NCBI GenBank assembly: GCA_008933995.1
Contig: WARS01000015.1
Location: 11,297,861 to 11,361,860 of the forward strand
Direction: 5' to 3'
Source of the DNA: Datnioides undecimradiatus
Taxonomy: Eukaryota > Chordata > Actinopteri > Lobotiformes > Datnioididae
DNA: 64,000 bases
Numbering within the stretch: position 1 is the first letter of the stretch; each line of letters starts with the position of its first letter. Shown one piece after another: positions 9,547 through 64,000 of this stretch. Below the pieces are notes generated by a model, which was given only the letters and a program-made list of their open reading frames with translations, was not told the DNA's origin and did no database searches. Position numbers and translations under genes: made by a program.

Positions 9547-25850
<16,304 letters not shown>

Positions 25851-27908
25851 AGAGGAAAATCACCCAAAGTGCCGTGCTCCTCTTCAACCGAGTCGCTCTT
25901 AATGTTGTTGCCCTGTTTGTGGCCAAAAGGACAAAGGCCAAATGGAGGTCTTTCTCATGCTGTGTGCCAGCACATGGCAAAGCAGATTGTGACTGAAAGA
26001 GTTGTGGTTCCGAAAAAAAGACCAGCTTAAAAACTACTGCCAAGGTGCCTTTAAAGCAAGGCACTCAACCCCCGTTTCTTCAGTGGAGCGGCTTAGTGGC
26101 CGGCAGCAGGATGGAAATGTAAGCTTGGATTCAAGGAACTGAGGAAGATGATGTCGCTGGGGAAAAAAAAGCAAAGTGTCCAGTCACACATCCCGGATGA
26201 GGTTTTAAAAGAAGAGTTCAAGAGTTTGTGAAGACTGTGAGTAGATATTTTCCAGGCCTGAAGCTAGAGAAGCTTGTGTCAAACAAGTTCTTTGTGTGTA
26301 TGCGCATGTGTGAGAGACAGAGAGATAAAGAGTGTGTGTTGCGTCCGTACAAACAGCTAGCAGGGCTAGCTCTCGCCATCCCCATTTCCCTTCACCTAAA
26401 GAAAAATGGACTTAGTGTTTTCTATGTAAGTGTGTACAGTATATACCAACAGTACATTTGTGTACATATGTCCAGAAAATTTTTTTTATAATTTTATAAA
26501 ATGGAAAATATAGTAAATACTATATTTGAAATGCCAGCAATGTGTCAGTGTAAATTAAGTACATACAAAGGTGATTTAAAAATCTGTTGTTTTATGTTTT
26601 CATTGTGAGAGGTGGTGTGAAAATTAAAGAGCACATTAATTCAACAGTGTACGCGTTAAGCAAATTCTTGTTGCCTGTCGTCTGCCTTCGTCATTTCCAC
26701 AGAATTCCACATGAATTCATGGGCAGTTGAAACAGCACATTGTATACTATGAACAGTGTTTTGAAATTAAGAAAAAAATGAGAAGAAATTACACAATTAA
26801 CAGCAGAATAGAGAAGATTTATCATTAGAAACACGTGCTGTATGTGTCTTAAAATGCATTAAAATCTGAAGCATGTCCGACTTTGATTTTGTTGTTGAGG
26901 GCTGGAAAATGATACAGATGGGGTTAATGTAGCATGCTCAAGATACCTGTATTGTTGACAAGTAGTGTACCTCTTTCATCATGAATGCTTTACTTCTGGA
27001 GTAAACTGGATTAAAGGGAACTTGGAGATTAGTTTACAGTGAGTCCAGTGTATATGCTCCAAACTGTAAGAGTGCCTCTTACAAAGAACTTAAGTTGAGC
27101 ATCAAGTTAACGCAAGCTGAATTATCCAGCTCCCGATTCAAAACAGGTGTTCTTTTACCTCCACACTGTACAAATACCTTTGGGCATATCAGCGTCTTCA
27201 CTAATTTCAGAAATGTTGTCCAGTAAGTTGAGTCTCGTTGCCTTAAAAGGTTGCGACCAGACAGACTTCAGGCAATTATCAAAGTACTGAGGGATTTGAG
27301 GTCTTTCTTATTGTTACAGGTGTGTAGTTGAAGCTGTTGTCCAAACAACACTGTGGAGCACAGGGAAACCATTTGAAACATCTCCATTTGCATTTGTTGA
27401 AAAAAAAAAAATTCTGTCCCCTAGGGGGGCATGACAGAAAATAATTGAGAGCCACTGAATTATAGAGACCATGGGTTAGGGGCATGTGAAGGGGTTTTCA
27501 CCCGATGTTAGAAAGAAATTATGAAAAGATATCTAGCAATAAATACAACAATGACTATTTTTAAATCAAAAACTAAAATTAAATCTGTAACTTCAATCTG
27601 CAGTGGAAAATAAAGGAACGGCACTACTCAGTACGAAACCAAATACTGGGAATAATTTATTTAATGTTACATGATGCTCCTACTCTATTACATTTCACTT
27701 TTATACTTTTCAGTGATCTTTCCACTCCAGTATAAAAAAAACCATCAAATTTCTTTCCATGTTAATATTACTTGTAGGTAAGTTAAGTGTTTTTTTTCTG
27801 TAAATCAAAATTATAAGATGGTAAATGAAAAGTATTCAAATTTAGAGACAATAAGTAGAAATCGTGACAAATTATTTTTTAACAAAAACATTTACTTTTG
27901 GCTATTAA

Positions 27909-27961
<53 letters not shown>

Positions 27962-28200
27962 TACTCTCTATATATGTGTATGTATATTGATTTTCTTCTG
28001 GTTTCAAGTAGAAAGCTGCAAAAATCAATCCAGCTATAAAAACACAGTCTGATCTCTTCATAAACAAACGTTGTCTTTTTTTCAGTATTATCAATTCGTT
28101 TTTTGCCCATATGAGAAGACCTTTATTTTTGTAATTAGCTTACTCTTGGTATAAAGGCAATAATTGATATATGGATAGAAATAACAACCAGCGACGTTTT
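25851..28200 (+). other. JAK2 3' UTR and JAK2-SLC16 intergenic region
   Basis: JAK2 3' UTR sequence follows the stop at 25848-25850. A possible ATTAAA poly(A) signal lies at 26622-26627. The remainder is AT-rich and contains the (TA)n microsatellite. I looked for the relaxin/INSL genes that flank JAK2 in mammals and saw none. Confidence 0.5.
27911..27958. repeat. (TA)n microsatellite
   Basis: About 24 uninterrupted TA units between JAK2 and the SLC16 gene. The tract is self-complementary and can form a cruciform. Confidence 0.95.
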
Positions 28201-28554
28201 ATTCTGAAACCCGGAAGTTGCGTATGCTGCGGATCAGCTGCAGCTTAATGAAAGCCAAGGGTGTCTGACCGGTGGTGAACGTCGGCATCTCTGATCACCG
28301 TTAATAGTTCACAGCTGGTGAATGAGTCCAGCTGAGTGCTGTCAGGCTTGTTTGTTAAATGTAGAGAAAAGGCGCAGAGATACCGCAAACGTCCCCGTTC
28401 GTTCTCCTTTATTTGATGTCGATAGCGATTTTTACCTTAAACTTCAGAATAAGAGCGCGGTATGAATCCAGTGCGAAGTCACCGCAGTACAGAAGGACCA
28501 GGGAGCTCGTAGCAGAGACCCAGATACTATGCTGAGGACGACAGGAGCCGGGCG
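28200..28554 (+). other. Candidate SLC16 promoter and non-coding first exon
   Basis: A locally GC- and CpG-enriched block ends at a GT donor (GGGCG|GTAAAG, intron starting at 28555). It is upstream of the coding exon that begins after an acceptor near 29102. It contains no convincing coding sequence, so I read it as a 5' UTR exon. The start of transcription is not determinable from sequence. Confidence 0.4.
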
Positions 28555-29136
28555 GTAAAGGAACAAAAACGTGAGCTTGAAATTTCTATAACTTTTATAT
28601 ATATACTTTTGCTGTTTAGCATAGCTTGTTGAGTTAGCCAGGACGATATTTTTTAATCTGAGCGAACAGTTGTGCGGGTCAACGTTTCGTGCAGAGAAAC
28701 GGAGAAAGATCATTTGAAATGTCCCACCTTTCTCTCGGTGTTCACTTATGTTTATTCCATTTTTAGAGTAGCAAAACTGCATTTTATAGTACTACTGGGG
28801 TTGGACTGGTTATTGTAATATTTATTCTCTTGTTCTACATGTACAGAACAAATATTGTTCATACATGGAGAAACAAATATTGAATAAAATGACGGACATA
28901 TAACTGAGCTGTCACTGTGCAAGTCCAGTCTCACCAAATGCCAAACAACACAGCTTTATATTGTCTGAATTACAAGAAAAGTATGGTTATCAGTTTAATC
29001 TGTCTGACACAGTTTCTCAATGCTGCTAGTTCATGTATGTATGAACAATTTGCATGTTCGTTTCCATGAGCCCTGCCCTGCCCGTTCATGTCATTCAACA
29101 CAGGCAGGAGAGCAGCCTGCAGAGAAGCTGGTGAAG

Positions 29137-31771
29137 ATGAAGTCCAGGACAGCCGGACCTCCAGACGGGGGCTACGGCTGGGTGGTGGTCATGTCAGCCT
29201 TTTTTATCGTGGGCCTCACTGCCGCCGTCCTCAAGAATTTCGGCCTGTTCTTCTTGGACATCCAGAGTCACTTTGGGGTCCCAACCAGCACCACATCTTG
29301 GGTCACCTCCACTACGATTGCCATGTTTCACCTTGGAGGTAAAGGGATTTCTTTCAGCTTGAAGTTACCTGTTGTTTTGAAATTTGAAATGCTTTTATAG
29401 TGGTGTTTTCATTTTTTCCTTTCAGCTCCAGTGGCCAGTGTGCTGACCTCGGAGTTTTCTCAGAGAGTGGTAATTATAGTTGGGGGCCTGCTCGCTGCCT
29501 CGAGGATGTTGCTGTCTCTGGACCTCAGCCTCCCCTGGTTCTACCTCGCCATGGGCTTCCTGCAAGGTAGCACATGGAGCCAGCATCCTCACATCCAGGA
29601 AGCATTGCCAGTGTTCTTACCTTTAACTAATCTTTCTGTTTTTCTTGCTGGAGATGCTCCCAACAGTTATTTAAATGAAAAAGTCTGAAGTTCAGAGAAT
29701 TTTGAGCCTGCTTCATTTAATGGGCGAAAAAGTTGCTCCCATCCAAGGAAAGCAGGTGTTTGGCCTGAACACCCCTTACTTGTGAATTTGTTGCCATTTT
29801 CATGTGTTTTTTAATATGTGCTGACATATGTTTTCTGATTATCAAATAGAAGACCTGAAGTTGGTCTGTTATTGAGTTTTGGGGTGTAGGAGTCCTCTTT
29901 TAGGAAGAGGAGCCACATGTGACACACAAGTGCCAGTAAAGGAGAAGATAATTTGACTGTTTGGACTATTTGAAAAGACTAGCATGTGCAAACCAGACTG
30001 TTGTTGAGATGACAAAGTGGTCTGAGTCTTGAACTTAAAGGTACAGATGCAGACGGTTTCAGCTGGTTTATGACATTTTGCAAATTGTAATGGGCATTTT
30101 TTGGACTGTTGCCAGTTTGTACACAAGAGATGAATCAGCAGATTAATCAACAATGACAATAATCATTAGTCAGGGCTTCTAACCTCGACAAAAATCAGTT
30201 CTTCTGCACAAATACTTCCAAAATAGATTAAATGGTTAAAGCTTTCTATCCTCTATTTCCAGGTTTAGGCATATCCTTCTCGTGGATCCCTGCCAACAGT
30301 ATGGTGAACCATTACTTTGTACAGTGGCGTCCCATTGCCTATGCCATCGCCAGCTCAGGAGAGTGTGTCTTCGCTGTTCTGTTCAGCCCCTTCTTCCAGT
30401 GGCTCATTGAGATGTACAGCTGGCAGGGCACTTTGCTCATCATTGGAGGCCTTCAGCTCAACCTGTGTGTGTGCGGCGCTCTCATGAGACCCCTGGAGAC
30501 GATCCAAAGCTCAGTGCAGGAAACCAAAGATGGAGGAGAGGGCGATGCAGCTGTCTGTCTCCCCCACCAAAGAGGAAGCTCATCTTCTAGTGCTCCCTGA
30601 TTAGAAAACCTGAACTTTTCCTCTACATCCTGTTCGCCATCTTTGCAGCAGCAGGGTTTTTCATCCCACCTCTCTTCCTGGTGCCCTTTGCCAGCAGTTT
30701 GGGGATGGATAAGTACTGTGGCTTCAAATACTCTGTCCTGGCATTGGCAGACCTGGCGGGGAGGCTGATTTGTGGCTGGATCGCCAACATGAGGCTGCTG
30801 AGGAACCTACAGCTGCTCACCATGGTGGTCACTATGCTTGGGGTGGTGCTCCTGCTGCTGCCCATCAGCCACAACTACTGGGCAATCCTGGTCTTTGCCT
30901 CACTCTATGGCTTCCTGTTCGGCTGCGTGGTGGCCATTCACGTCACCTCCATCGTGGACATCGTGACCCTGGAGGGATTTGACAATGCGCTGGGGCTCTT
31001 CATGCTTTTCAGAAGCATCGGTGGCTTCGTTGGTCCACCTGCTGCAGGTGAGCAGTCTGTGTTTGCATCATCAGAGAGAAAAGGATGAATACACAGTTTA
31101 AAGAAATGAAAAAAGATTGTTACAGAAGGTTTACACACATATACACGTCATTTTAAAAGTTACAACATGGGTGATACTATGATAGCAAAACAATGCTTTG
31201 TTTAATAATACACTGGGGGAATCTAAACAAAATTTAACCCATACAAAATGGTGGAGTCCAAGAAAGAAATCTTGTTCAAAATTTTTTTTTGATTTTGACA
31301 AAACATAAATATCAATAGACAACATTTAAATTTTTAACCCAGTAAACATTCATTATTCTTTTAAAGGACAATTAGTTCTCTTCAGTTTCTCCTGAAAACA
31401 GTTCTGTTATGAATGTGAGGTAAATCGAAAACTGGATGTAACATATTTAATTATATTCATGTGATAGACTCTGTTGGTACAGGTAACTCCTGACATGGCA
31501 CTGCAGGTCTGGACTGCTGAAGGAACTGATGCATCTGTTCATTTATTCATCAGCCCTGGCACAATGTGATCTTCTGTGTTTACATGCAGGCTGGCTGGTG
31601 GACGAGACCCACGACTACAGCGCCGCCTTCTACCTCTCAGGCCTCTGCCTCATATCGTCAGCAGCATTTGTTGTCGTCGTCGACCGCATTGTTCAGCGGA
31701 GGAAATCCATGGAGGCTGAAAGTCATCAGGCGATCACTCAGGAGAGCTGGGAAGCAGGAAAACTCAAGTGA
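29137..31771 (+). CDS. Monocarboxylate transporter of the SLC16 family (MCT7/SLC16A6-like)
   Basis: Twelve-TM major facilitator that moves monocarboxylates or related small solutes across the plasma membrane. Coding exons are 29137-29338, 29426-29566, 30263-31047 and 31590-31771, all GT-AG. The N-terminus has the SLC16 signature PPDGGYGWVVV before TM1. SSGEC and GGLQLNLCVCGALMRP match TM5-TM6, and GFFIPPLFL begins TM7. The SGEC motif recalls human SLC16A6, but SLC16A12/A13 share much of the rest, so I leave the symbol open. The large third exon is 785 nt, one short of a frame-preserving length. The frame before about 30588 ends at a TGA (30598-30600), while the TM7-TM12 half is open only in the -1 frame. 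The slip lies in the variable cytosolic loop between TM6 and TM7. A third frame also looks protein-like there (ending LLVLPD), so more than one indel is possible. A poly(A) signal is listed separately. Confidence 0.85.
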
Positions 31772-32507
31772 GGCTCTGTTTCATAAGGATTTTTACTGTG
31801 AGTCAACTTTAGGTGCCAGAAAGACTCCCTTGTTGTTCATCAGTTGATCCCATGCTAACTGCTGCATGGTTTGACCTCGTCAGTCCCAGAAGAACGGCGG
31901 CATCCTGTCCTCTGTTTAAATGAGGTTTTCACACAAATGATCGCTCAGCAGCTCGTCAATAACCCTGGTTCTGAGGAGCAAAACAGGTTCTCATGCCTTA
32001 TTGTAACCACTCAAAGTGTGGGGGTTAGCAGTTGGTTGTGTCTCATTGGAGGACGCTGTAAATGAAGTGTTGCTTCTGATATTTATTGGTTATGTTGCTT
32101 TTATAAGTAATTTATATCGTATTAGTTGAATCTAATGAGACAGATTTTTTTTGTGCTTCTTCCATTTGTCAGCCTTTGTCATCACTGTGTCATAACATTG
32201 TAAATGTGACTTTAAAACACCTTTTTAGGTATTTTTTAAAATTATTTTATGTTTTTATTTGGTAACCATAGAAACAAAACACACCAAAGAAACTGAGCTG
32301 ACACAAAACACTGTTAAAATGATGGTAATGTTTAACAAATCCCATGAAAAGATGGAAACAAACACTGTTGGGCCATCTCTCAATACTGTCTTTTCAGGTC
32401 TTTGATGTTTTTTCAATAATAATGCAGCTGCAGGGCACAGGAGAATAAGCTGTATCTATGAAAACAGTTTATTATTATTTTTGGTCTTTGAATTGTTCAT
32501 TGGCAAT

Positions 32508-32513
32508 AATAAA
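32508..32513 (+). terminator. Poly(A) signal of the SLC16 gene
   Basis: AATAAA about 740 nt after the SLC16 stop codon, followed by an AT-rich stretch. It is the best candidate for the end of this transcript. Confidence 0.55.
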
Positions 32514-33559
32514 ACTTTTTTGGCATATTAATCTTTTTTTATTTTGGCCCTTGAGTAATATGTATTTTTTAAATGTATGTATATAAAGTAAAAGCCAAAA
32601 TATCATCAATTTCTCTGAGGATACAGCAGTCCTGTATGTGATCAGTAAACCACATGTGGGTCAGGCCATGGTGGTAGTATTAACAGATTTTTGTTTCAGT
32701 TTACTTCTGTAGCTTTTTTTTTTAAATGTCTTATTGAAATAGAGATGGGTTTTTCCTTCTCAAGCTATTGTAACAATTACATTTTAAAAAATTAAATTAC
32801 TGTGCTGTTCACTTTAAATGCCCGACTCTCCTGTCTGACCTCTCCTGCTCTCGACTGTTTGTATATTGTTTGTGAAATGTTTGACTCTCCTGAAGGTAAA
32901 GGCAGATCTCACACAGTGTGCTCAGCCTCTCAGGGGCTGCCCACCATAACGTGAAACTGATACCCAGGATGAGGATAAATTGTAGTGCTCTTTTGGAATG
33001 TAATTATGTGCTGTACCGTCGCTCTGGAGTTAAAGTACAGTTATGCAACCTCATAATCGAGTCAGTTTCAGCCTCACTCTGAGCTTGACCTGGTGCTGAG
33101 CACTTTAAAATGAATCTGCCACTATTTTGTTTGTTAAGCCTTCTGCCAACAATTCACTGCTTCCTGCTTTTCAATGTGAACAATTTTATGATCAACTTTG
33201 GGCTTTGAACTGTTGGTCAGACAAAAGTAAAATATTATCAACTTGGGTTTTTGGAAATTTAGAGGGGCCTTTTTTTCTTTTTCTTTTTTTTGTGGCATTT
33301 TATGGACCAAATGTCTCAATTAAGTAAACAAAATTTAAAAAAATATATTAATCACAGCCTTAAATTGGGAGTTGCAGCCTTAGTAGTGGCACAATCATTT
33401 ACCTTAATGAATTTATGAAATGTCAGAAAATTGTAAATATTGATCCATCACAGTTCACCAAAGCTCAGGTTTATGTAATACATTGCATGAGTTTTCATTT
33501 AAAAACCCTATAGACTCCAGGAGCGACGCGGCGTCTCCATGGATGGTTGCCTCTGTGGT

Positions 33560-33812
33560 GGTCTCACTGTGTAGAGAATTTTGCATGTTCACGCTGTGTC
33601 AGTGTAGGTTCCCTCCAGGCACTCTAGCTTCAGCCACCACCCAAAAACACACATGATGGGGGAAGTGGGAACTCTAAACTGACCGTAGGAGTGCATGTGA
33701 GTGTGCATGAGTTTGTCTGGCTATATGTGTCAGCCCAGCAACAGACTGGTGACCTGACCTGGGTGTACCTTGCCTCCCATCCAATGACTGCTGGGATAGG
33801 CTTTTATTTATA
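33560..33812 (+). repeat. Teleost dispersed repeat (LINE-associated 3' block)
   Basis: The block contains degenerate versions of phrases from a very common fish repeat: 'gcatgttc..ctgtgt', 'aactctaaactgaccgtag', 'tgtgtcagcccagcaacagac', 'tggtgacctgacctgggtgt' and 'gctgggataggc'. I recognise it as a high-copy interspersed sequence, probably tied to an L2-clade (Maui-like) LINE, but the family assignment is from memory. Divergence is substantial, suggesting an old insertion. Confidence 0.55.
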
Positions 33813-33960
33813 TTCTGATGCTGATAGCTAATGTGTGAATAAAGGTATAAATTTATCAAAATGGTTGAAACAAACTCTGGATAGATGACCTGATTAGGGT
33901 CAATGTAATACTGACTAGTTGTCCTTGAATCCGTTTGATTTAAACGTGATCCACCAGTGA

Positions 33961-33974
33961 CCACTGGGTGGCAC
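33961..33974 (+). promoter_or_regulatory. CTCF-like core motif between convergent genes
   Basis: CCACTGGGTGGCAC matches the CTCF core with one mismatch. It lies between the 3' ends of the SLC16 gene and GLDC, a position where insulator sites are plausible. Confidence 0.25.
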
Positions 33975-34932
33975 TGTTTTGCTTCAGTGAGAACTTGAAC
34001 TCAAAATATGCACACACTCAACGACAAAATGTTTAATACAGACATCTTTTTCTCTACAGACAAAACAGTTTAGATTAGAAAATAATGAATTTAAAATTAA
34101 GATATGCTATTGTCAAGAAATGTCAAGACACATTAACACAACAGATGCATATTAACAAAAACCTACCATAAACTACCCTCTACGTTTTGTCAGGTATTTG
34201 AAAAACTGAAAATGGGAATGTCAAAAACAGCTATTTTACACACAACAGAAATTGAGGCAGCAAGGGTTTTCTTCTTTTTATAGATGTCGGGAGTCTAAAA
34301 ATGAACTGTACTAAACTAAAAGTACAGTATTTCAGAGGTGTGTTATGTTAGGGTGCACTTATTTTGCGACCTGGAAACGTAAAAGTTGCACCTTTGGTCC
34401 ACTGTAAAAGTTCGAGAGGGTGAAAACCCGACGAGCCCCACAAAAGGGGTGCACACAGACAAAGTCCAGTCCCAATGTCTATCTCACAGACTTTAACACC
34501 CAGCGCCTAAGGGCTCAGACTCAAATGTGAAATTACAAGTGTTGAAAGTCCTCTTGAATCTTTTTGCTCTGCTTACTACAGAAATTAACCACAATTCCTC
34601 AGGCCCAAAGGTCTGACATTATTTTAAAAATATACTAACTTAACAAGAAAACAAGAGCATCACATGTGGGGTTGTGTCATGAAGAGTCTGGGAGAATAGA
34701 TTTGTTTTTATCTAATTTGAGACGAGTATTGCGAGGAAAAAGTCACTAAATTTTACCACATTTGAAATATAAGCATCACATTTAACTTGCTTCTGCCCCA
34801 GCAAACTTGATTTCACCGCGTAGTGTAGCCCGCACACCGTCCTGCTCTCACATTTTCACTGAGAAAACAGGTGTGAAGTCTGTGATGTTTTCGAGCTCCG
34901 GTTGGACATTGGGACTGGACCACAGGGAGCAT

Positions 34933-51038
<16,106 letters not shown>

Positions 51039-54000
51039 CTCTAAATCACTTTGCAAGACAGGTCTGCAAAAACTGTGGCCGCCTTGTCCTCCCCTCGCTC
51101 AGCGACAGAGATTCCCCCCACTCAGACTGATGCGATCCCTGCAGGAGACTCTGCCAACTCCTTCAAAACTGCGGAGTTTATACAACTGCACAGTTGCACA
51201 AGAGCGGGCCAATCGGAGCGGAGATGCTGCGTGACGCTGCGAGGAGCCCCGGTCAAACAGCTGCTAAACTTTCTCACGTGCCCACCCATTCATTGACCAA
51301 GGAGGGGAAAAAATAGTAGAAGTATCACTCTGGAGATATTTCAGGAACAAGGTACGAAGTCCACCCTGAACAGTGAGCCCTCGATGGCTTTAATAGATGT
51401 GCAGGTGTGCTCAGTGATAGTAGGTGAGCGCTAGAAAACAGACAGGAACAACCGGACCTCCTCAGCATTTACCGAGTGACCAATAAAGACACATACGTGG
51501 TGCTTATTCCAATTTTATATTTGAAACAGTAAATGCATCACACTAACTCAGACGTTGAGATCTTTCAAGGGCAAACCACACACACCCCGTCTTTTATGAA
51601 TCATAGATATTTGCATAATATAAATATGCATGAAATTGGTAAAACCTATGCAGAGAGCCCTCAAGCAAGGGCGGCTTTCCATAGACTTGGCTTTTGTGCC
51701 TTCACGTACCCGTAGGAAATAAGGAGTGCTGTTGTTGATGTTGATGTTCTGCCATTCTGCCATTTGTGTTCTGGATCACAATTAAATTAAACCTTATTTT
51801 GTGGTTTTTCCTTCGATGTTCTTTGGCTGTTGTGCTTCTGTGACATGCACAGTTGTCTGATGGACAGATAGCTCTGCCTTTTTCTAAAGTAACAAATAAC
51901 TGATCCTAGGCTGGGATTCAACACCGTAAAAATGGACAGGGGCCAATTTGACAACAGGAAAAACAGTACTCGTTTTGTCTTCTTTAGTTTTTTGTTTGTT
52001 TTTTGACAGGTATAACTCCTGAAACCCTGCAGGTGACACACTGTGTACCTGGCTTAGGCTTCTGAACACTGCTAATGCCAACCTCCTTCTTACTCATTTC
52101 TCCTGTCCCTTGGGTGTGTGCTAAAGCCTCTATACAACAGTAAAGTACAGTGTGCAAATGTTCCTTCACTTCACAGGAGAAGAGGCGTCAAAGTATCTAA
52201 GATGGGTGAGACAAAATAGAGCTTCTGGAGAGACATCAAACAGGTGCTCCATCCATAGCTGACTGTTGAGGCAGTAGTTTCCCCATGTGCCAAAGGCAAA
52301 GTACCTTTCTGTGCCTTAATCAGGACTGTTGGCAGATAAAACTTGGTAACAAAGGCTCAAAGGTGTTCACCCCCATAGCAAGGTACAAATTCCAATGTCT
52401 GAAATCATAAGAAGTGTTTCAGAGAGTTATCATGCAGAACACTGAAGGTCTAGACAGTTTTGTGAATGTCATTGATGATTTGCTTGACAGAAAAGCATTA
52501 ACATATTCTTAAGAAGTTGTTAAAGAGAGCAAGGGAGTATAACCTGAAACTTGTGTGTTATCAGGACAAAAGCACAGCGAATCACAGCCCTAATACACAC
52601 CACTGGAAAGTGCCGGATTATCAACAAAACTGCCAAACTCCATCTCCCTGCTATTCCAGAGGGGAACACTCCAGGTGTGCTGGCAGTTGAGAGAAAAGAA
52701 GAGCAAGCACAAACTCTGCTTATACAGGCAAACATGGAGTCTATCTGACCTGCAAGTTGAGGAAAATGTCAGGGTGCAAACGGAAGTGACATGGTAGCCT
52801 GCCATGTTCCTGAACAATTAGGTGTTACCAGGAGGGAGACTGTAGATGAGATACAAGAAAGTATCTGGAGAATATAGATGAGAAAAAACATTTCAATCTA
52901 CACATGGGAACTCTACAAACAGGATATTTATCTAAACACCAGGATCCAGTCACTAATGCTACATCCACAGTAAGAGTTCAGGGAGGCATGTGTCCAAGCA
53001 ATGGCTACATAGAGAAAGTAAATAGATCAGTGTCTGCACTGGAGGACTGTGCCAAGACAGTTTATTTTTATTTAATCAAACTCACCTGATGCCCTTTAGG
53101 TTTTGTACCAAGGTAAATGAGCCACTGAAATTGCTTTTCTAGCAGATCTGGTGTATTTGTTCCATTTAGCTTTTTGTAGGCTCAACTACTTTGGGAGAGT
53201 GAGATAGCAAAAGAATATATTGTATCACAATTCAAGTTCAAGACAGGGATGTAAAGTGCAGTGGAGGAGCTTGTTTGCTGATGGCTCTGACTCCCATTCT
53301 ACTTTTGGAGACTGACGTTTCTGATCGTTAAGGTCTTATAATCTAAAAATCATCATGTCAGCTGAGAAGCCAGGTCAAGACTGGATTTCTCACCAAAATC
53401 TAAACAAACCACTCTACCAAAATTCCTACATTTTTGCTGTTAGGGATTAGACTGCTAAACATTCAAAGACCTCATCTGACAGGTGGAAATTCCTAGGAGA
53501 GAGATATCATTCGTGTCTAAACTGAACACGTGGGAAAGGATTTGAATACCACTGTGACATATTCATAGTATTGTAAAGTTCATCAAGTTGCTGCTAGTTT
53601 TTTGGCAGCAGTTAAACCAGGAACAATATTGTGTCACTGAGAAAATTGTACTATGTACTAAATCTAAAAGAGATAAGAACATAAATGCTACACTAATACT
53701 GAATAAACACTAACACAAACATATGCAGACAACAAGGAATACCATTTTAAGGTAAAGCTAACAGTACCGCTCTAGATATGACTAGGTCAGTTGGTCACCA
53801 AGTTGGCTCAGATTGAAAATCTCAACAACTGTCACATGGATTTCTCAGAAGTTTTGCCCAGACATCCTTGATTCCCAAATGAAGGATCCTACTTATTTTC
53901 CTTTGACCTTTCTCTGACACTAGTGCGAGGTTTTTTTTGTTTTTGAGTGTAATGTAAAGGGATTGCTGTGAAGTTTGACGCACACATTTAATCATGATGG

Positions 54001-56347
54001 TGTCATGATGGTGGTCAATACTTTTGTAAGCGGTACTATATATTTAACTAAAATTGATAATTATCATGCAAGTCTTTAGCTCAAAGCATTGCATGTCTTA
54101 ACAGACTGACAGAGCAACACCAGGAGCGGCCGTTGATTCTTTTCTATACACACTTCAACTACTGCCATTAATCCAGTTGTAATTATAAAATGACAAACTG
54201 TGCAGTGTTAGTGTGTCTTTACTTATCAGAGGCAACAGCTGGAGGAGTCCTGAAAAAAAGCGATGGATATACATGATACATACATATATATGTGATTATT
54301 GACATGTGCTGTCTCATAGCATCAAATGAACCATGAGAGCTCAACAGCTCCCATCACAAACCCTGAAATATCATGACTTTTTTTCTATTACCCATCCTTT
54401 CTCTTCTCAGAATTTGTGAACCGTAGACGGATTACAGTGAAGTTACAGGGTTTCCTAGAAAGGGATTTTGTTCTGGCTCCCTTAAATCATTGCTGTTGAC
54501 AGTTATTGTGTTGCAGCTGCATTCATACATGAGTCAGACACCATTCCAGGGTACAGGAAATTAGTTAATCCTCAGAGAAGATCAGGCAAGTACTGATAGG
54601 TTGTGCTACATTCGAACATGTTTGTTTCAGTGGTGCCCCTTGGAACAAACATATTGCATAACAAGTCAGACCTGTTTGGTCATTTCTTAAGGGCAGTTCA
54701 AAACATCCTACTCCAGCCTATTGTACCTACCTCTATCAGTTATAATTTCCACCTTAGTATTGTACCAATAGTTTACTAATCGGATTGTAAACATATGATT
54801 CAGATGACATCCAGATAGTCAAAAATATAGTTTAGTGTCAAAGTGAAGTGACCTGTATGCTGCGTGGATGAAATCTGTTTTTAAATGCTGTGTTATTCTT
54901 TACTTTTACATTCCTCTCAAATACAAACATCGTTTGATATCTAAAATAAGAGAAGCATGCCGTGGCTCAGAACCTGCCACTATTTTAAAAGATTAATTAC
55001 ATATATGATTGTTTGTTTGTTACTAATACCAACAAGCAGTGACAAACCAGTTTGCATGTGAATAAAACCTTGAATGAGATTGAAAGAGTTGATGAGACCT
55101 GTTCTTGTTTTTGATTAAGTGGGGAGAAGGCTCACTTGCATTTGTTGTATGTTGTATTAATGCTTTGTTCATGTGCAATTACACTGTAAAGTGTTAAAGT
55201 TTCAGTAACTTAAAGGGTATAAAACATCAGAGTGCAAGTGCTTGACCTACCTTTCTATCTCTATCTCTTTCTTTGTTTACTCTGATTGCAGATTGTTGTT
55301 TTGCAACACAAACAAAGCATTACTGTTGGCTGTTTCTAATTTTTGTCATTTCAGAAACAGTTCCTAATAATGCTAACAGCTACAAGACTAAAAGCCTCAG
55401 ATATGAAAAACAAAATACCTGCTTGCTGACTAAAGCCACCAAGAAAGGACAGAGCTGATTAAGCAGCTCTACAATCAGTGGTGGGGGTACTGTGGTCTTT
55501 AATTAGGCACTACAGTAAAAATACTGTGTAGCATAAATGATGCTACTTAAAAGTAGACATTTTATCAGGATAAGTATAAGAATAATAGTTCTATTATAAC
55601 TATTGGATTCTTTATACTGATACAACATTGTGTCAGTAGTATTATACTGTTATAGCTGCTTGAGGTGGAACCAGTTTAACTGCTTTATGTGCGGTCAGTC
55701 AGTTAGTATAGTCCAGTGGTGCCTAATAAAGAGCCACAACTACACACTGGCTTTTGTACGAGGTAGAAAAATGTTCTGTGACACTGGTTCATTCTTTAAC
55801 AATGCATGGTAAAAAGTACAATAGTTCCCTCTAATATGCTGCCGAGTATAATGTATCATTGATTTAAAATACTCAAGTAAAGCACCTTAAAGCTGTACTA
55901 AATTACAGTATTTGATTGAATGTACTTTGTTGATTTTCATAATTGCCTATAACACATATTAAGATCAGGTTTGAGAGAAAACTAAATACATGATGAATAA
56001 TCAAAAAAAAAACAGAATTCCTGTTTGATTTGGGGAAATAAAAACTGAACAGAGTAAGAAAACACAAAACAACAGGCTGCTTGTGGTCGTTAGAGTTACT
56101 GAAATATGGACCAACAAAATGCTTTTGTATCCCACACCACAGATATTGTTAAATAAAGAGAATAACTATTATCAGTACTGCACAATAGCAAATATGAGAA
56201 AGTACTTTAATGCAGACCACAAGTGGAATGGCAAAGAGAGTCGGTCTGGTTAAAATAAACATTTCACCCTTTAATGAGACAATCTACATCAAACATCTGC
56301 TGTCAGAGGCTTTATCCAGTCTGTGACTTTCACCCAGAGACTCAGAT
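51039..56347. other. Intergenic region, GLDC 5' flank to MBOAT4
   Basis: The first 250 bp upstream of the GLDC start are GC-rich and probably hold its promoter and 5' UTR. Beyond about 51.4 kb the sequence is AT-rich and I find no host gene. The only recognisable item is the Ty3/gypsy-like fossil near 52.4 kb. Remaining open frames are short and unrecognised. Confidence 0.55.
52385..52560 (+). mobile_element. Ty3/gypsy-like LTR retrotransposon fossil, reverse transcriptase fragment
   Basis: A short stretch is related to the reverse-transcriptase palm region of fish Ty3/gypsy elements, including a Phe-Gln-Arg-Val segment and a following Asp-Asp pair in the usual spacing. Loose similarity may continue some way to either side. 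I see no LTRs, no target-site duplication and no complete domain. The copy is an old, broken remnant with several breaks over this short length. Confidence 0.55.
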
Positions 56348-59300
56348 ATGGCTTCGATGAACTGGCTGTGGGAACATCATCTGTTGTTAATGCATCAATG
56401 TTTTTCACTTCCATTCTCCTTTTTGTTTTATTTTCTTGCTTCACGAGGATATCTCTCCTTGACATACAGGTAAGTGAATACAAAATGATTTTTATTTATT
56501 TATTCCAATGCACTGTTACTTTGGCAGCCTTATTACTCTAAAATAAGTCACATTCTTCAGTAAAGGTATTTTTTAATATTTTTAAATAGTGGAGTTTGAC
56601 TTGTACAAGTGGAACACAAGAAAATAAAAGTCAGTTAGTTAGTTACTGACAAAGAACATTTTCAGTATTTTATCTATGTTTGTGTTTCTTTCTAGAAACA
56701 ACTTCCTAGATATTTGTTTTGCGTTTTATATATATGTTCTTTAAATACAATGACTTGACAAATTCACCGCCTGAGTGAGGAGACCATAGAACAGCTGACA
56801 AAAATATGAAGGCTCCTGGGTTCCCCTGCTTCACACAATACTACTGGGCATGTATCATTCAGAAAATATATATGGATGCATAATCTGGTGTGATTAACAC
56901 CATTTTGGGGCTCAAATGAAACAGTTATCTGCACACTTGTACTTGTTGTTATATACTCTTAACTGCCACTGTCTCCTACCTTCAGTGATGCACGGGCCTT
57001 CCACTCATGCTTCTCTTTTAATGATTTTATGTTCAACCTTCATTGACAGACAGTACTTCTGGTATTCAGTTTAACAGGGCATTAAAGAACATGGATGATC
57101 TTGGTGGTCACAGATTATCAATATATTTAGCTTAGCCTTTCACTTGGCATCCACCGTGTTTTTTCAAATTAGACATTTTTGTACAAAACAGTTTCCTCAA
57201 AACCCCAGACCCTCTTCGCCAAAGCGCCACTATATATTTTTTGTGAAGTCTAGTAAAAACTCTTCATCGCCTCTATCTTTATCCAAACTGACTCTTTTAA
57301 TTAAGGGATTCTTGCAGAAAATTGATGGGAGATGGTGCTGGTTACTGAGCTACCACAGGAAAAGTGGAATCACATTCTTGATCAGATCCACTCATCCTTA
57401 ATTTGTGCAACACATGACCTACAGTCCAGTACAACCACCTTTAAATATTCTGCATATAATCCACTGTTCGAATGCTGGATTAGCAAAAGATGTGCTCTAG
57501 TGCTAGTGAGGCCTGTGATATGTGCATCACTCGGAGAACCTAGAAATCAAAAAAGCTCAGAGAGAACTGACCAACTGATTCGTTGTTGCAGGTCTAGCAG
57601 TCACCATGATTTCTGTCTACAGGTACCTGTATGTTTTGGTTGGAGGCTGTCTCCTGGCAGTCATCACGATGGGCATCTACAGTGCAATTCTGTTTACCTC
57701 CAGTTTTGTCTTTATCCTGCTTGTGTGCACTGTGGATCCTAGCTGTATCCATGCCTGGGTGTTTGCTATCCAGATGTTATGGCAAACCTCCTGGCACCTG
57801 CTTATACAGTACAGAGAGTACTACCTGCAGGAGCCTATCTGCATCAGGTACGGACCTTAGTTGAGCACATCTGTATGTAAGCTGACAGCTACATGCTTTG
57901 CATTTTAGCAGTCAATGGTTAATTTTAAAGGTGCGACATTGAATCAGCTCTACTAACAATTTTCACCTGATACATTTTTTTTTAAAAAACTATACACATC
58001 AGTATCAACATGGATTCACCAGCTAATATTTTCCATTCTTATAAGGATTGTGCACTATAGTTTATTCATTCATCAATACCTCATAAATCATCCTGTTGCT
58101 TGCAAATACTCAAAAGATAACTAAAAAGGAACTTCATCATCCTATTTGGATAACAATTGGCAAAAACTGCAGTGCCCATGTAGTTTATGTAATTATTTCA
58201 ATTTAATTATAGTTTTTTGGCACGTTCTCAGTAGAATCAAGTCATGGCAGGAGAGAACCACAAGCAAATTCTGAAAGTCTGAAACTACTGAGACGGACTA
58301 AAATGTTGTTGGTTCTGGTGTTTTTACAAGATCTGTTGATAGAAACAAAACAAAATATAAATAATAATAATCCCTGTCCTTTAAGATGCATTGATCGTGC
58401 CTAAAGTACTAAAACATCTGCTGGAAAAGAATTTGCTTTCAGAATGTAAACCTTTGCTGTCCATCAGCTGTTTTTAATCTTACAGACCTTGGCTGTCCTG
58501 GAGCTTAAAAAACCATTAAGGATGAACTTTAAACCAAGGTTGTTAAATGCTATTATGCTGTCTGCTCCAGGGGGTCTAACAGGTAATACCTGTTTCTTTA
58601 ACTTGTGTTTCCAGATTGTTTTTGGCTGTTTCCTCTTTGATGCTTCTAACTCAGAGAATCACCTCAGTGTCCATGGACCTCCAGGAGAAACAAGTCATTC
58701 TAGTTAACTCTTCCTCCAAAACCACGGGTTGTGTGATGCTTCTCTCTCTTAGCAGCTACATCCTAAATTTCACCACACAGCTTGGTGGTCCTTTGTGCTC
58801 CTACAGCCGATTTGTGTCTCTCATGACAGAAATCAGACCGAAGCCTCCACCTAATCCACTGGGTGTGGTCTTCCTGAAGCTGCTGCAGGTGTTATTGTTG
58901 GAGTGTTTAAGGTATTGTCTTGTATTTTTTCTGAAATATAACACCTATAACCCTTCTAATTGTGTCATTCTCTATGGCGTCCTGAAGGTTTGGGGTCTAG
59001 CTTTGGTTTTAAGGATCCAGTATTATTCTCACTGGAGGATCAGTGAATGCCTCAATAATGCAGCTGGGTTTGGCTTTTGGGAAAATTCATCAGGAGCCTC
59101 CACAGACTGGGGTGGACTATCAGATGGGGATATCTGGACCACTGAGGCATCGAGCCGCATATCAGAGTTTGCCCGTCGATGGAACACCACAACAGCCTTG
59201 TGGCTGCGCAGAGTGGTGTATATGAGGTGCAAACGCTTCCAATTATTCATGACTTTTAGTTTTCTCTGTGGTGCTTGCACTTAGGTCACTTTGTGGGATT

Positions 59301-59562
59301 TTACACCTGGGCAGCAATGGTGAAAGCAGATTATTATATCCACAAGCACATGTGCCTTAAACTTTCACCAACATGGAGGAAAATACACACTGTGTTAAGC
59401 TGGATAAACACTCAAATGATAGTTTCTTGTATTGTTATAGCAGTAGAAATAAGAAATATGTCTGGTTTGAGACTTTTGTCCACAACATACATAGGTCTGT
59501 TTCCACTTCTTAATGTCATGCTTCTTTTTATCTTGCAGAAACTCAACACCAACCTAATGTAG
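56348..59562 (+). CDS. mboat4: Ghrelin O-acyltransferase (MBOAT4/GOAT), catalytic-site region damaged
   Basis: ER multi-pass acyltransferase that octanoylates ghrelin at Ser3. Three exons as in human: 56348-56469, 57623-57847 and 58615-59562, with GT-AG junctions and matching phases. Exon 1 encodes MASMNWLWEHH and aligns with human MEWLWLFFLHP. Exon 2 has YLYVLVGGC and YREYYLQEP. Exon 3 has SSLMLLTQRITS, YYSHWRISECLNNAAGFGF, SDGDIWTTE and RRWNTTTALWLRRVVY. The proposed catalytic Asn of MBOAT enzymes is present (codon 59183-59185). The second catalytic residue, His in the WWHGLH motif, should lie near 59264-59280, but the bases there give only Trp-Cys-Leu-His in one frame. Several bases are missing, the frame drops by one, and the upstream frame stops at 59282-59284. 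The C-terminal part is open again to TAG at 59562 and matches GOAT well. Without the lesion the protein would be about 432 residues (human 435). Either an assembly deletion or true inactivation. Confidence 0.88.
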
Positions 59563-59742
59563 CTATGTAAACAGACACACCTACAGATTTGATATATAAA
59601 GGCATTATGTCATTAAGATTGATGAATGAATTTTCTATTAGTCTCAATATGGGGAATCTGCAATCATCAAAGTGTATTTCTGTATTTGTTTTCTTTGTCG
59701 CTGTTTTTTCTGACTCTTTGAATTTTGTTTGCATAGGGGAAA

Positions 59743-59748
59743 AATAAA
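59743..59748 (+). terminator. mboat4: Poly(A) signal of MBOAT4
   Basis: AATAAA 180 nt downstream of the MBOAT4 stop, the first such hexamer after the CDS. Confidence 0.6.
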
Positions 59749-60347
59749 TGATTTATTGATTTGAGAAGTCTTACAAGCAAATGGAAATGATGCTCTGTTT
59801 TAGTGGCTACTTTGTGAAATGAACTGGTCTTAGGTGTTTGAGGAAGGGTTTGTCTCTGCTTGCAGGAACTGAAGATAGGTTTTATAATTTTAGTCTACAT
59901 TAAATCACATATTCTATTCATTACAACATAGATGAGCACCAAACTAAGAAACAGCTACAGCATCATCCTCTTTAATTACTCTTTTGATTGTGCAACCTGC
60001 ATATGTCTTGCATGGTTGACTGTGACTCATGTCCCACTGCATTTGTTTTTTGTAAAACAAGCTCAGAGACCTGAGTGTACATTACCCACCAGAGAGCTGA
60101 AGCTAACCAGTGACTTGTGTAAAAAATATCAAGCAAAAGTCCCAGATATTGGTAAAAAAAAGACCAGTCTATACTTTGTAAGGTGGCCACTGTTTTGGGA
60201 TCATTCTGCTCCCTAGTGGTAAAAATTACTTAATGCAGCTTAGAGGTCTATTAAGCAACAATATTACAACAATTTCCCAATATCGTGCATGTTTATTATG
60301 ACACAATGTTCCTGAAGAGAAAAATGTTTGTCTTTACTAGGAAGTAT

Positions 60348-60353
60348 TTTATT
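60348..60353 (-). terminator. coq2: Poly(A) signal of COQ2
   Basis: TTTATT on the + strand, which is AATAAA on the minus strand, about 160 nt beyond the COQ2 stop. Confidence 0.5.
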
Positions 60354-60513
60354 TATCAATTTATTGTCCGCTTAAAATGGATTTTTACAAACAGCATATA
60401 AGAATCTTTTGTTGCTTTTGTTCAGAGTAAAAATCCCCAAAGATATCATGCAATGCTGTAGTATGCAATTTACTGTACATGTAATACAATAACATTTGTG
60501 CTGATTGTCTCAC

Positions 60514-63500
60514 TTATCTGAATTCTTCCCTCATTTGCAGCAAAGTCTCTCTTCTTTCTTTCCATAAATTCCCGGCAACAATGCCTAAGAATAACAACAG
60601 TCCAAGGTTTCTGTTTGAGACGAACTTCTTCCAGCAGTCCTCTGGGTTATTAATGTCCAAAGTGTAAATCTAAGGATAAGCAAACACCACATATTAATGA
60701 AAACTCTTGTTTGTGGTTAGAATAATAGCTAAAATGACCTGTTACACATGATATTCATTTACATATTTACGTGAAAAATTGTGGAATAAATTATACGTAA
60801 TAATTAACCCTTTGTTAGCAAGCATTTAGACTACACTGTATAACACCACGTCCCTCACCTGATGCGTTAGGTGAATGGCCACTGTGGACAATACAGCATA
60901 GTAAGGGACAGTCTATTCAGCACTGACTCCGGCTGCAACCAGTCCTGATATCATGGCCACCGTGAAGCCACTCAGCCAAGGTTTGGTTTGCTCCCCAAAC
61001 CTCAGTGCAGTAGATTTGACTCCTACCTTGACGTCATCCTCCTTATCCTAGTTATCAAGGAAGACCAGAGTTCTCCAGTCAGTGTTATCCTGCTTTAAAA
61101 TGTGAGGCATTCAGCTTTCGTTCTACTTAAGAGTGAAAATGAGAATGTTACACCCCTAGGAGAAACTTGAGCATAACATAAAAGTGGCTCCCCTTTTACC
61201 CAACTCCCAAGGATGACCCAATAAAAACAGTAATCTGAAAACCCTAGATTGCAATTGTATGACATTAAACATTTACTATACTTAATTTAGTAAACCTTAT
61301 TTATCGCAGTGGCATGTGTCAGTTTCACTGCTGCAGTTCTCTTTTCATAATAGGCATCAGCTTCACATTGAACCCACAGTTCAACACAACATTGCAACAC
61401 TGCAGTGTGACATGGACAAGACATTCTCATCACCCCTTTTTTAATTTCATGAGTGTAACTGCATATAATAATCATCATTTGTCTTTTTCTATGGATATCA
61501 TATGAATGTATTTGCAGATCGAACAAGATCTCCAGACCAAACACTGAGTTTACTCACAGTTAGACATCTAAACATCTGTTAGATTCCAGCTAAACATGTT
61601 CATAAAATGCTGCTTAAGCCACCAGCTGCTGGAGCTGTGTGCTGAGTAAAAACGGATGATTGGATAATTTGGTAAATATAGAATACTGACTGATATACTG
61701 ATTAAATTATTAATCAGTAGTTAATAATTTAATCAGTAGTCAGTAGATAATTTCAATCATAAATGATGAAAAGCAACTTTCTATGATGTTTCTTTAGATA
61801 GAATACTTTACAGAAAGCACAGATAACTGTGGAGAAACTGTGGAAACTGTGGAGTCTCCTACTTTACCTGATGTGCATATATAGTGTCATATATAAGCAT
61901 CCTCATCACTCCTGAGAAATACAGTGGAAGACACACCGACCAATCACAGGAGCCCTTGACAGCAGACCAGCCAAGCAATGCCCCCCAGTTGAAAGTGAGG
62001 CCTAAATAGAAGTTCCAGAGGGAACATGAGACCAACTTCAGCTTTAATGATGGGGGAAAGTACACAGGATAATCTTAAAGAGTTCATACCCAAAATAAAC
62101 TGTGGCCAGTAAGTAATCCTCTTCATCAGTGGGTAGGTGATGACAAGAGATAATGAAGCAGCACCCAAAGCTATGCTGAAAAGAACATTATAAAAACCGT
62201 AACTCTTCATTAGGTAATTTTAAAAGTCAGTTGGTAAACTGTTTGATCCAGTGTATATTCAGAGGACAAATCCTTAAGACAACAGTTACATGCCAAATGA
62301 ACAGTGGTCATTCTTCCTGCTTTTGTTATTACTCCTGTTCACACTGGCCATTAAATGTGTTTGCAGTGTAAGTGATGGCTGGTAAAATTAAGAGTCCTTG
62401 TGTTGCGAATAACATATTCAAAAGTTTATCTGAAGCTAATAGAAGGCTAGGAGAGACAAATCAAATTAGTATCTTCCACTGTTACAGTTCTGCTATGTGT
62501 TTCTCTAAACAGTGTCTCCACGTTGAGCTGCAAGAAGAGGAGCAGCAACAAAAACATAGAAGATTCTGAACCTGTTCTTTTAGTACCATTATTGTATCCC
62601 TCAGGGGTATTAAACCCCAAATTATGGCAGTGTTACCAACACTATTTGGTTAATCTTCTCTAAATCAGATATAATGAAAACATTAAGATCACCTATAATA
62701 GTTGAGACACAAGAGAACCCCGAGTGCCAGAGAGAGCTGTCCTCCTAGGAAGACAGTGCCTGCATCTGTGAAATCTGTCCCGATGCAATGGGTCGAGTGG
62801 CTGTCCTGGACACCTGCACCAAAACATCATCATATTAGATATTTATAATTCTTGTGCTGATATAGTAATATGGTCTGTGTTGACAGTGACTCTGTGAGGG
62901 ATAGTGATGCAGGTAAAGTAAAGACACAGCTTAAAACATGATTCAGCATGTTAATAAGTATCATTCTTTGTAAATACTAATGGGTGAATGGTTTGCGTCA
63001 TTTACCTTTTTGTCAAAGTCTTTATCCCACATGTCATTGATGGTGCAGCCAGCTCCTCTCATCAGAAGAGCACCTGTACCAAACAGGGTAAGCATGCCCA
63101 AATGTGGGAGACATCCTGGGTCGGAAGCCAGAGCAATGCTCCACATACATGGGAGGTAGAGCAGCCATCCTACAGCACACAGACACACTATAACTGAAGT
63201 GAACTGAACTGGAGATTAGCATCTAAACAAAGGTATGAAGAAGTTTACTTCACCTTTACTTTAGTTAATAATTTTAGACTTTCATACACACACACACACA
63301 CTTTCATGTATATTATATCCATATACAGTACAAATGAATGTACAAACCAATAGGTTTGTCCAGCCTCATCAATCGGGGTATGGCTGGACAAAGACGCTGG
63401 TGCTGAATTCACAATTGTAGCAGCTGACAAACTGAATGATCTTCTCCCATATTGCTGGGTTTCACTTAGTTTAAGTGATGGGCGGATTGCACTCTGGCTG

Positions 63501-63673
63501 TAAACACTCTTCCAACACACTGGAATCTCTGAGTACAGACCAGCCCTACTCCTTTCTCCTTCTGTGCGTAGGAGGCAGCTTGACAGGGAGTAGATACAAG
63601 GATAATAAGTTCCATGATGAATCCTCCACAGGGCATTCAGAGTTAACTGGCTGGTCAGCTTAGCAGGTAGCAT
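60514..63673 (-). CDS. coq2: 4-hydroxybenzoate polyprenyltransferase, mitochondrial (COQ2), with frame lesions
   Basis: Inner-membrane UbiA-family prenyltransferase that joins the polyprenyl tail to 4-hydroxybenzoate in ubiquinone synthesis. Seven exons as in human, 5' to 3': 63673-63348, 63169-63006, 62813-62693, 62175-62090, 62001-61868, 61047-60859, 60669-60514. The N-terminus is a Ser/Arg-rich mitochondrial presequence ending [14 protein letters not shown]. Exon 2 has the first Asp-rich prenyl-diphosphate motif, [15 protein letters not shown]. Exon 5 has [19 protein letters not shown] and [10 protein letters not shown], and exon 6 begins DKEDDV, the second Asp-rich motif. Lesions: exon 1 lacks two single bases around VQPY and [10 protein letters not shown]. 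Exon 3 lacks one G before the [11 protein letters not shown] segment, producing an in-frame TAG. Exon 6 has TAG at 60915-60913 where the family has Gln (one C-to-T change). Splice sites are all canonical. COQ2 is essential in animals, so a real null here would need another copy; assembly error is likelier. Confidence 0.9.
61696..61738. repeat. Perfect 18-bp inverted repeat (hairpin) in COQ2 intron
   Basis: The left arm 61696-61713 (TACTGATTAAATTATTAA) and right arm 61721-61738 are exact reverse complements around a 7-base loop. The stem is AT-rich and lies in the intron between COQ2 exons 6 and 5. The pairing is not followed by a T-run on either strand that would suggest a terminator. It may be a small cruciform or a palindromic MITE core. 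Confidence 0.85.
63286..63301. repeat. (AC)n microsatellite in COQ2 intron 1
   Basis: Eight AC units, 47 bp downstream of COQ2 exon 1 on the transcribed strand. Confidence 0.8.
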
Positions 63674-64000
63674 GGTGTTTCCCTGAGGTCAGACTGACAT
63701 TATCTGTTTTTCCCACAGAAAGCGTCACCCTGAGCACAAAAATAATCACACACACACACACACAATGCTTTGTCACTGCGGTTTTCACAGAAGAGGACTG
63801 ATTTGCTGCAACAGGCATTCCTTTTGTACCAGTATGAATCGGCTGCACAATGACTGAGATATTCATGTGCGTGTAGCGTAGCTATAGAAGTAAGTACAAC
63901 ACTCTGTGAGGTTATATTAGCTGGTGCTGGGAAAACGTTTGAAAAATGTGTGAGCTTGTCGGTAGATACAGTCACATAGAAAACAGCACACGTATTATTC
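63674..64000 (-). promoter_or_regulatory. coq2: COQ2 5' flank
   Basis: Upstream of the COQ2 start codon. It holds a (CA)n tract at 63747-63764 and no coding sequence on either strand that I can support. The COQ2 promoter should lie here or just beyond the window edge; no TATA box or CpG block is evident. Confidence 0.35.

What the first reader, a model, noticed from the sequence alone, without database searches (positions are those of the whole stretch)
29137..63673. All four genes right of 29 kb carry frame lesions while JAK2 beside them is flawless
JAK2 reads without a single slip over 3363 coding bases. The next four genes (SLC16, GLDC, MBOAT4, COQ2) each contain frame slips, and GLDC and COQ2 also contain substitution stops, all inside well conserved exons with canonical splice sites. 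Most slips are one-base losses, many in short G or C runs, which fits residual long-read error. A shared real cause would be more exciting, for example decay of a linked non-recombining block (young Y or W haplotype) whose edge lies near 26-30 kb.
Basis: partly seen in the sequence, partly recalled or inferred. Interest (0 to 1): 0.75.

Follow-up and report, generated by a model that had tools for sequence, protein, structure and literature searches.

The report
Assembly errors over a duplicated contig
The broken genes are almost certainly an assembly artefact: the same genome assembly holds a second, intact version of this exact stretch on a small contig, and the version in the window looks like a badly corrected form of it rather than decaying DNA.

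Summary
A spliced aligner finds 0 frame events in JAK2 (23 exons, 3,333 bp) and slips or stops in SLC16, GLDC, MBOAT4 and COQ2. The window lies in a 19.8-Mb contig (C328) of a 581-Mb assembly. A second contig, C89 (53,786 bp), matches C328 end to end from window 27,948 to 81,662 (17.7 kb past the window), 98.8% identical, longest indel 9 bases. The modelled exons of all four genes are open in C89, as are a ZNF462 exon and another frame broken on C328. Beyond both ends JAK2 and SECISBP2 are clean. Differences are error-like: 281 substitutions to 240 indels, 304 of 521 events in short bursts (64 expected at random), equally dense in coding and noncoding DNA, with no sign of selection. Rhie et al. 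2021 describe such a failure: a cleaner copy attracts the reads and the primary locus stays unpolished and frameshifted. No reads could be checked.

The parts
27948..64000 (+). window part of the error-rich stretch of contig C328, matched by contig C89 1-36119 (the whole stretch runs to window coordinate 81662 = C89 53786)
   Evidence: one collinear match, 98.8% identity, 281 mismatches and 240 gap openings over the whole stretch
27912..27958 (.). TA repeat (23.5 copies) in which C89 begins: left edge of the affected stretch
9563..25836 (+). JAK2 coding exons, clean control outside the duplicated stretch
   Evidence: 0 events in 23 exons; 18,000-26,000 searched: one near-identical place; the other 58 listed matches are at most 97% over short pieces, JAK-family-like or repeat
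29158..31767 (+). SLC16-type (MFS_1) transporter, broken in window; open over the part kept in C89 (1211-3815)
35675..47399 (-). GLDC (glycine decarboxylase), modelled from human residue 112 on; broken in window, open in C89
56357..59541 (+). MBOAT4-like acyltransferase; indels at 59,263 and 59,272 in window, open in C89
60550..63442 (-). COQ2 (UbiA prenyltransferase); slips and a stop in window, open in C89 over the exons kept
29698..29848 (.). largest error burst, between SLC16 exons: 22 events
33505..33579 (.). error burst outside modelled exons: 19 events
35927..36031 (.). error burst inside GLDC exon 24: 20 events

Best explanation
The window's version from 27,948 on is a poorly corrected stretch of long-read sequence in the main contig, and contig C89 is a clean second version of the same locus left in the assembly. 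Shown: C89 is fully contained and collinear, is open in every coding exon modelled, and covers the stretch in which genes are broken, while the genes tested on either side are clean. Inferred: the assembly step. Either reads used for polishing went to the cleaner duplicate and left the main copy raw, or a gap in the main scaffold between two clean contigs was filled with a weak long read while the clean contig (C89, both ends in simple repeats) stayed unplaced. On this reading no gene is inactivated in the animal.
For: C89 aligns end to end (1-53786) to window coordinates 27,948-81,662. Its models for SLC16, GLDC, MBOAT4 and COQ2 have 0 stops, as have a 1,741-aa frame (ZNF462 by Pfam in its first 580 aa) and a 433-aa frame; on C328 these six are broken, with 55 indels (51 frame-breaking) and 5 stop substitutions in 12,552 coding bp. 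Outside: JAK2 0 events in 3,333 bp, SECISBP2 0 events in 649 bp; the DNA searched there (window 18,000-26,000 and 88,000-94,000) has one full-length place each. Spectrum: 281 substitutions to 240 indels, 179 of 240 indels 1 bp, longest 9 bp. Clusters of 3 or more events hold 304 of 521 events; 1,000 random placements give a mean of 64 and a maximum of 100. Coding indel density 4.4/kb, all 4.5/kb; coding substitutions 12 synonymous, 56 missense, 5 stop. Both C89 ends lie in simple repeats. Precedent: Rhie et al. 2021, PMC8081667, section 13 and legend of Extended Data Fig. 11a.
Against: No reads were available, so depth and read support are untested. No second case of the same kind was confirmed in this assembly: of five small contigs fetched two were searched (C100, C90) and both began in repeats; C200 was sent twice and never answered; C150 and C60 were not searched. 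Homopolymer lengths left and right of 28.5 kb do not differ in 7 of 8 tests; C/G runs of 6 or more are 9 left and 2 right (Fisher P 0.012, uncorrected). Outside the stretch only frame events can be seen, so in-frame or cancelling errors in JAK2 are not excluded, and part of the JAK2 gene (left of 18,000) was not searched for a second copy.
Confidence: 0.96

Rival explanations
1. The window is a genuinely decayed haplotype (young Y/W or another non-recombining block) and C89 is the intact partner.
For: Six neighbouring coding models are all broken and coding substitutions show no purifying selection; the edge is sharp.
Against: The block has exactly the length of one small contig, with clean genes on both sides. 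No indel over 9 bases, hence no mobile-element insertion difference, in 53.7 kb. Indels nearly as common as substitutions; events packed into bursts far beyond random beside identical runs of up to 1,894 bases. In GLDC 15 of 21 modelled exons hold no indel while exon 24 holds about 20 events.
Confidence: 0.02
2. C89 and the window stretch are a real recent duplication, one copy turning into pseudogenes.
For: Two copies exist in the assembly.
Against: C89 is a separate small contig wholly contained in the other copy, with no unique flanking sequence and both ends in simple repeats; the burst pattern argues against mutation.
Confidence: 0.015
3. Within the artefact reading: C89 is the other haplotype (heterotype duplication) rather than a second version of the same haplotype (homotype duplication, or a contig displaced by gap filling).
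For: Isolated differences are substitution-rich (111 substitutions to 24 indels), as allelic differences would be.
Against: Isolated coding substitutions are mostly nonsynonymous (26 against 9 synonymous) and not rarer in coding than in noncoding DNA (2.8 against 1.8 per kb), as expected of errors rather than of standing variants.
Confidence: 0.35

Closest known systems
Unpolished primary locus opposite a higher-quality alternate sequence: Rhie et al. 2021, PMC8081667, legend of Extended Data Fig. 11a, TLK1 in Anna's hummingbird (section 13 read in full; other passages by term search; author name recalled)
   Same: A cleaner second version of the locus attracts the reads and the primary keeps frameshift errors; section 13 says false duplications have similar effects.
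   Different: Here the two versions sit in one assembly as held, and the affected stretch covers at least six coding models; read mapping could not be seen.
Heterotype and homotype false duplications: PMC9516828, 'Widespread false gene gains caused by duplication errors in genome assemblies' (passages by term search only)
   Same: A falsely retained second contig of one locus, with sequencing errors named as a minor cause.
   Different: That paper measures false gene gains; the word frameshift does not occur in its main text as held. Haploid read depth was not testable here.

Membership tests
False duplication with unpolished copy | Second collinear copy of the locus in the same assembly, contained end to end | tested here: met
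   C89 1-53786 against window coordinates 27,948-81,662
False duplication with unpolished copy | One copy carries short-indel frameshifts, the other reads open | tested here: met
   6 of 6 coding models broken on C328, 0 stops in the C89 models; parts left out are listed in Tried and rejected
False duplication with unpolished copy | Errors limited to the duplicated stretch | tested here: met
   0 frame events in JAK2 (3,333 bp) and SECISBP2 (649 bp); noncoding DNA outside could not be judged; the pieces searched there have one full-length place each
False duplication with unpolished copy | Haploid or lower read depth, or erroneous k-mers in the bad copy | not testable with these tools
   no reads available
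Decaying sex-linked (Y/W) haplotype | Structural divergence and mobile-element accumulation between the haplotypes | tested here: not met
   longest indel 9 bp over 53.7 kb
Decaying sex-linked (Y/W) haplotype | Lesions spread as mutations, substitutions well ahead of indels | tested here: not met
   281 substitutions to 240 indels; 304 of 521 events in clusters against 64 expected at random
Decaying sex-linked (Y/W) haplotype | Linkage to sex | not testable with these tools
   one unnamed assembly, no sex data

The most novel reading that the evidence does not exclude
The window stretch is a real haplotype with six linked broken coding models, including the mitochondrial enzymes GLDC and COQ2, kept heterozygous against an intact partner (C89).
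Probability: 0.02. Interest if true: 0.7.

Novelty: not a real feature. Interest (0 to 1): 0.05.

Why it matters
It does not matter as biology if this reading is right. As a caution, a gene-loss or pseudogene call for GLDC, COQ2, MBOAT4, this SLC16 gene or ZNF462 taken from the main contig of this assembly would be false; intact versions sit on the small contig.

Tried and rejected
Homopolymer run lengths left and right of 28.5 kb as a test for long-read error: 7 of 8 tests show no difference. Other small contigs as controls: C100 and C90 began in repeats and told nothing; C200 did not complete; C150 and C60 were fetched but not searched. The loci from C374 and C368 are identical over 3,588 bp, so gave no error pattern to compare. 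E. coli gcvP (L001) was fetched as a spare reference and not used. A paper search on gap closing gave only a listing; none of those papers was opened. The first script on C89 failed on a file name and was redone. Codon phases for GLDC and COQ2 were wrong; corrected counts are.

Left out before the counts: four 3-10-bp end pieces of the JAK2 alignment; a 20-bp last piece of SECISBP2; GLDC before human residue 112 (no credible exons in either copy); the 5' part of COQ2 exon 1, where the aligner puts a slip in C89 at 35,561 but the two copies do not differ between C89 35,508 and 35,620; the SLC16 tail after C89 3,815, where the aligner puts a slip in both copies and they do not differ. Event density inside clusters is inflated by the way clusters are defined, so the test used is the comparison with random placement.

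Full report
What is there. JAK2 gives 23 exons (9,563-25,836, 3,333 bp) bounded by AG and GT, with no slip or stop. GLDC, SLC16, MBOAT4 and COQ2 each give slips, and SLC16, GLDC and COQ2 stops too: 10 slips and 3 stops at 9 places, one further SLC16 slip dropped as an artefact of the tail; the bases were inspected. GLDC identity was confirmed by PDB search (human glycine decarboxylase chains); the class of SLC16, MBOAT4 and COQ2 by Pfam MFS_1, MBOAT and UbiA. The exact family-member names rest on recalled sequences. The organism was not identified; it looks like a fish, which is inference.

A second copy. The window is C328:11,297,861-11,361,860 in an assembly of 581 Mb and 497 contigs; C328 is 19.8 Mb. 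Searches with three pieces of the right-hand part each returned one further near-identical full-length place, on contig C89 (one search also lists 14 short matches of 86 bp or less). C89 is 53,786 bp. All of it aligns in one piece to C328 from window coordinate 27,948 to 81,662, 98.8% identical, with 281 mismatches and 240 gap openings; the longest indel is 9 bp. C89 starts within a TA repeat and ends at an AAT-rich repeat.

Which copy is broken. Gene models on C89 are open for the exons kept: 0 stops in SLC16, GLDC, MBOAT4 and COQ2. Two coding stretches beyond the window but inside C89 agree: a 1,741-aa open frame on C89, ZNF462 by Pfam in its first 580 aa, is split into six frames on C328, and a 433-aa frame is split too. 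Over 12,552 coding bp C328 has 55 indels against C89, 51 frame-breaking, and 12 synonymous, 56 missense and 5 stop substitutions. In these models the broken copy is C328 each time. Where the aligner puts a slip in C89 (COQ2 5' part, SLC16 tail) the two copies do not differ and homology to the human protein is too low to judge.

Where the errors end. Left of 27,948 JAK2 shows no frame event; of its DNA, 18,000-26,000 was searched and has one full-length place, the rest being JAK-family-like and repeat matches. Right of 81,662 four SECISBP2 exons are clean over 649 bp; window coordinates 88,000-94,000 have one full-length place. Like for like, by the aligner alone, 9 lesion places in 6,030 bp predict about 5.9 in these 3,982 bp; 0 were seen, P about 0.003 (hand arithmetic). 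The two-copy count gives 6.7 expected and P about 0.0012, but is more sensitive inside than outside. Noncoding DNA outside could not be judged.

What the differences look like. Of 521 events, 304 fall in clusters of three or more (gaps of at most 25 bp); random placement gives 64 on average and never more than 100 in 1,000 trials. The largest hold 22, 20 and 19 events in about 160, 105 and 80 bp, while 61% of 100-bp tiles show no difference and runs of identity reach 1,894 bp. Indels are as dense in coding (4.4 per kb) as overall (4.5 per kb). Isolated substitutions are also mostly nonsynonymous (26 against 9), which speaks for errors rather than allelic variants. Mutational decay would be expected to give more substitutions than indels, longer indels and no such bursts; patches of uncorrected long-read sequence fit (raw read error rates are recalled, not from a call). 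Homopolymer lengths did not separate the two sides in 7 of 8 tests.

Mechanism. Rhie et al. 2021 (section 13 read in full; legend of Extended Data Fig. [quoted passage not shown] That accounts for the present case. A variant, filling of a scaffold gap by a weak long read while the clean contig stayed unplaced, explains the containment and the repeat-bounded ends of C89 equally well; reads or the assembly's methods are needed to choose.

Verdict. Ordinary artefact, low interest.

Noticed in passing
contigs C368/C374, C275/C276, C296/C297, C473/C474, C471/C472 of the same assembly: Several contig pairs gave matches at the same or nearly the same coordinates with equal scores; the 3,588-bp loci from C374 and C368 are identical. 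Further duplicated contigs may remain, some at megabase coordinates.
   Followed up: partly
window coordinates 66,206-71,368 and 74,835-76,131 (right of the window, C328): A ZNF462 giant exon and a further open frame are also broken on C328 and open on C89.
   Followed up: yes
window 24,000-25,060: A repeat element between JAK2 exons with many copies in the genome, mostly 74-90% identical.
   Followed up: no
window 47,400-50,500: No credible first exons of GLDC (before human residue 112) were found in either copy.
   Followed up: no
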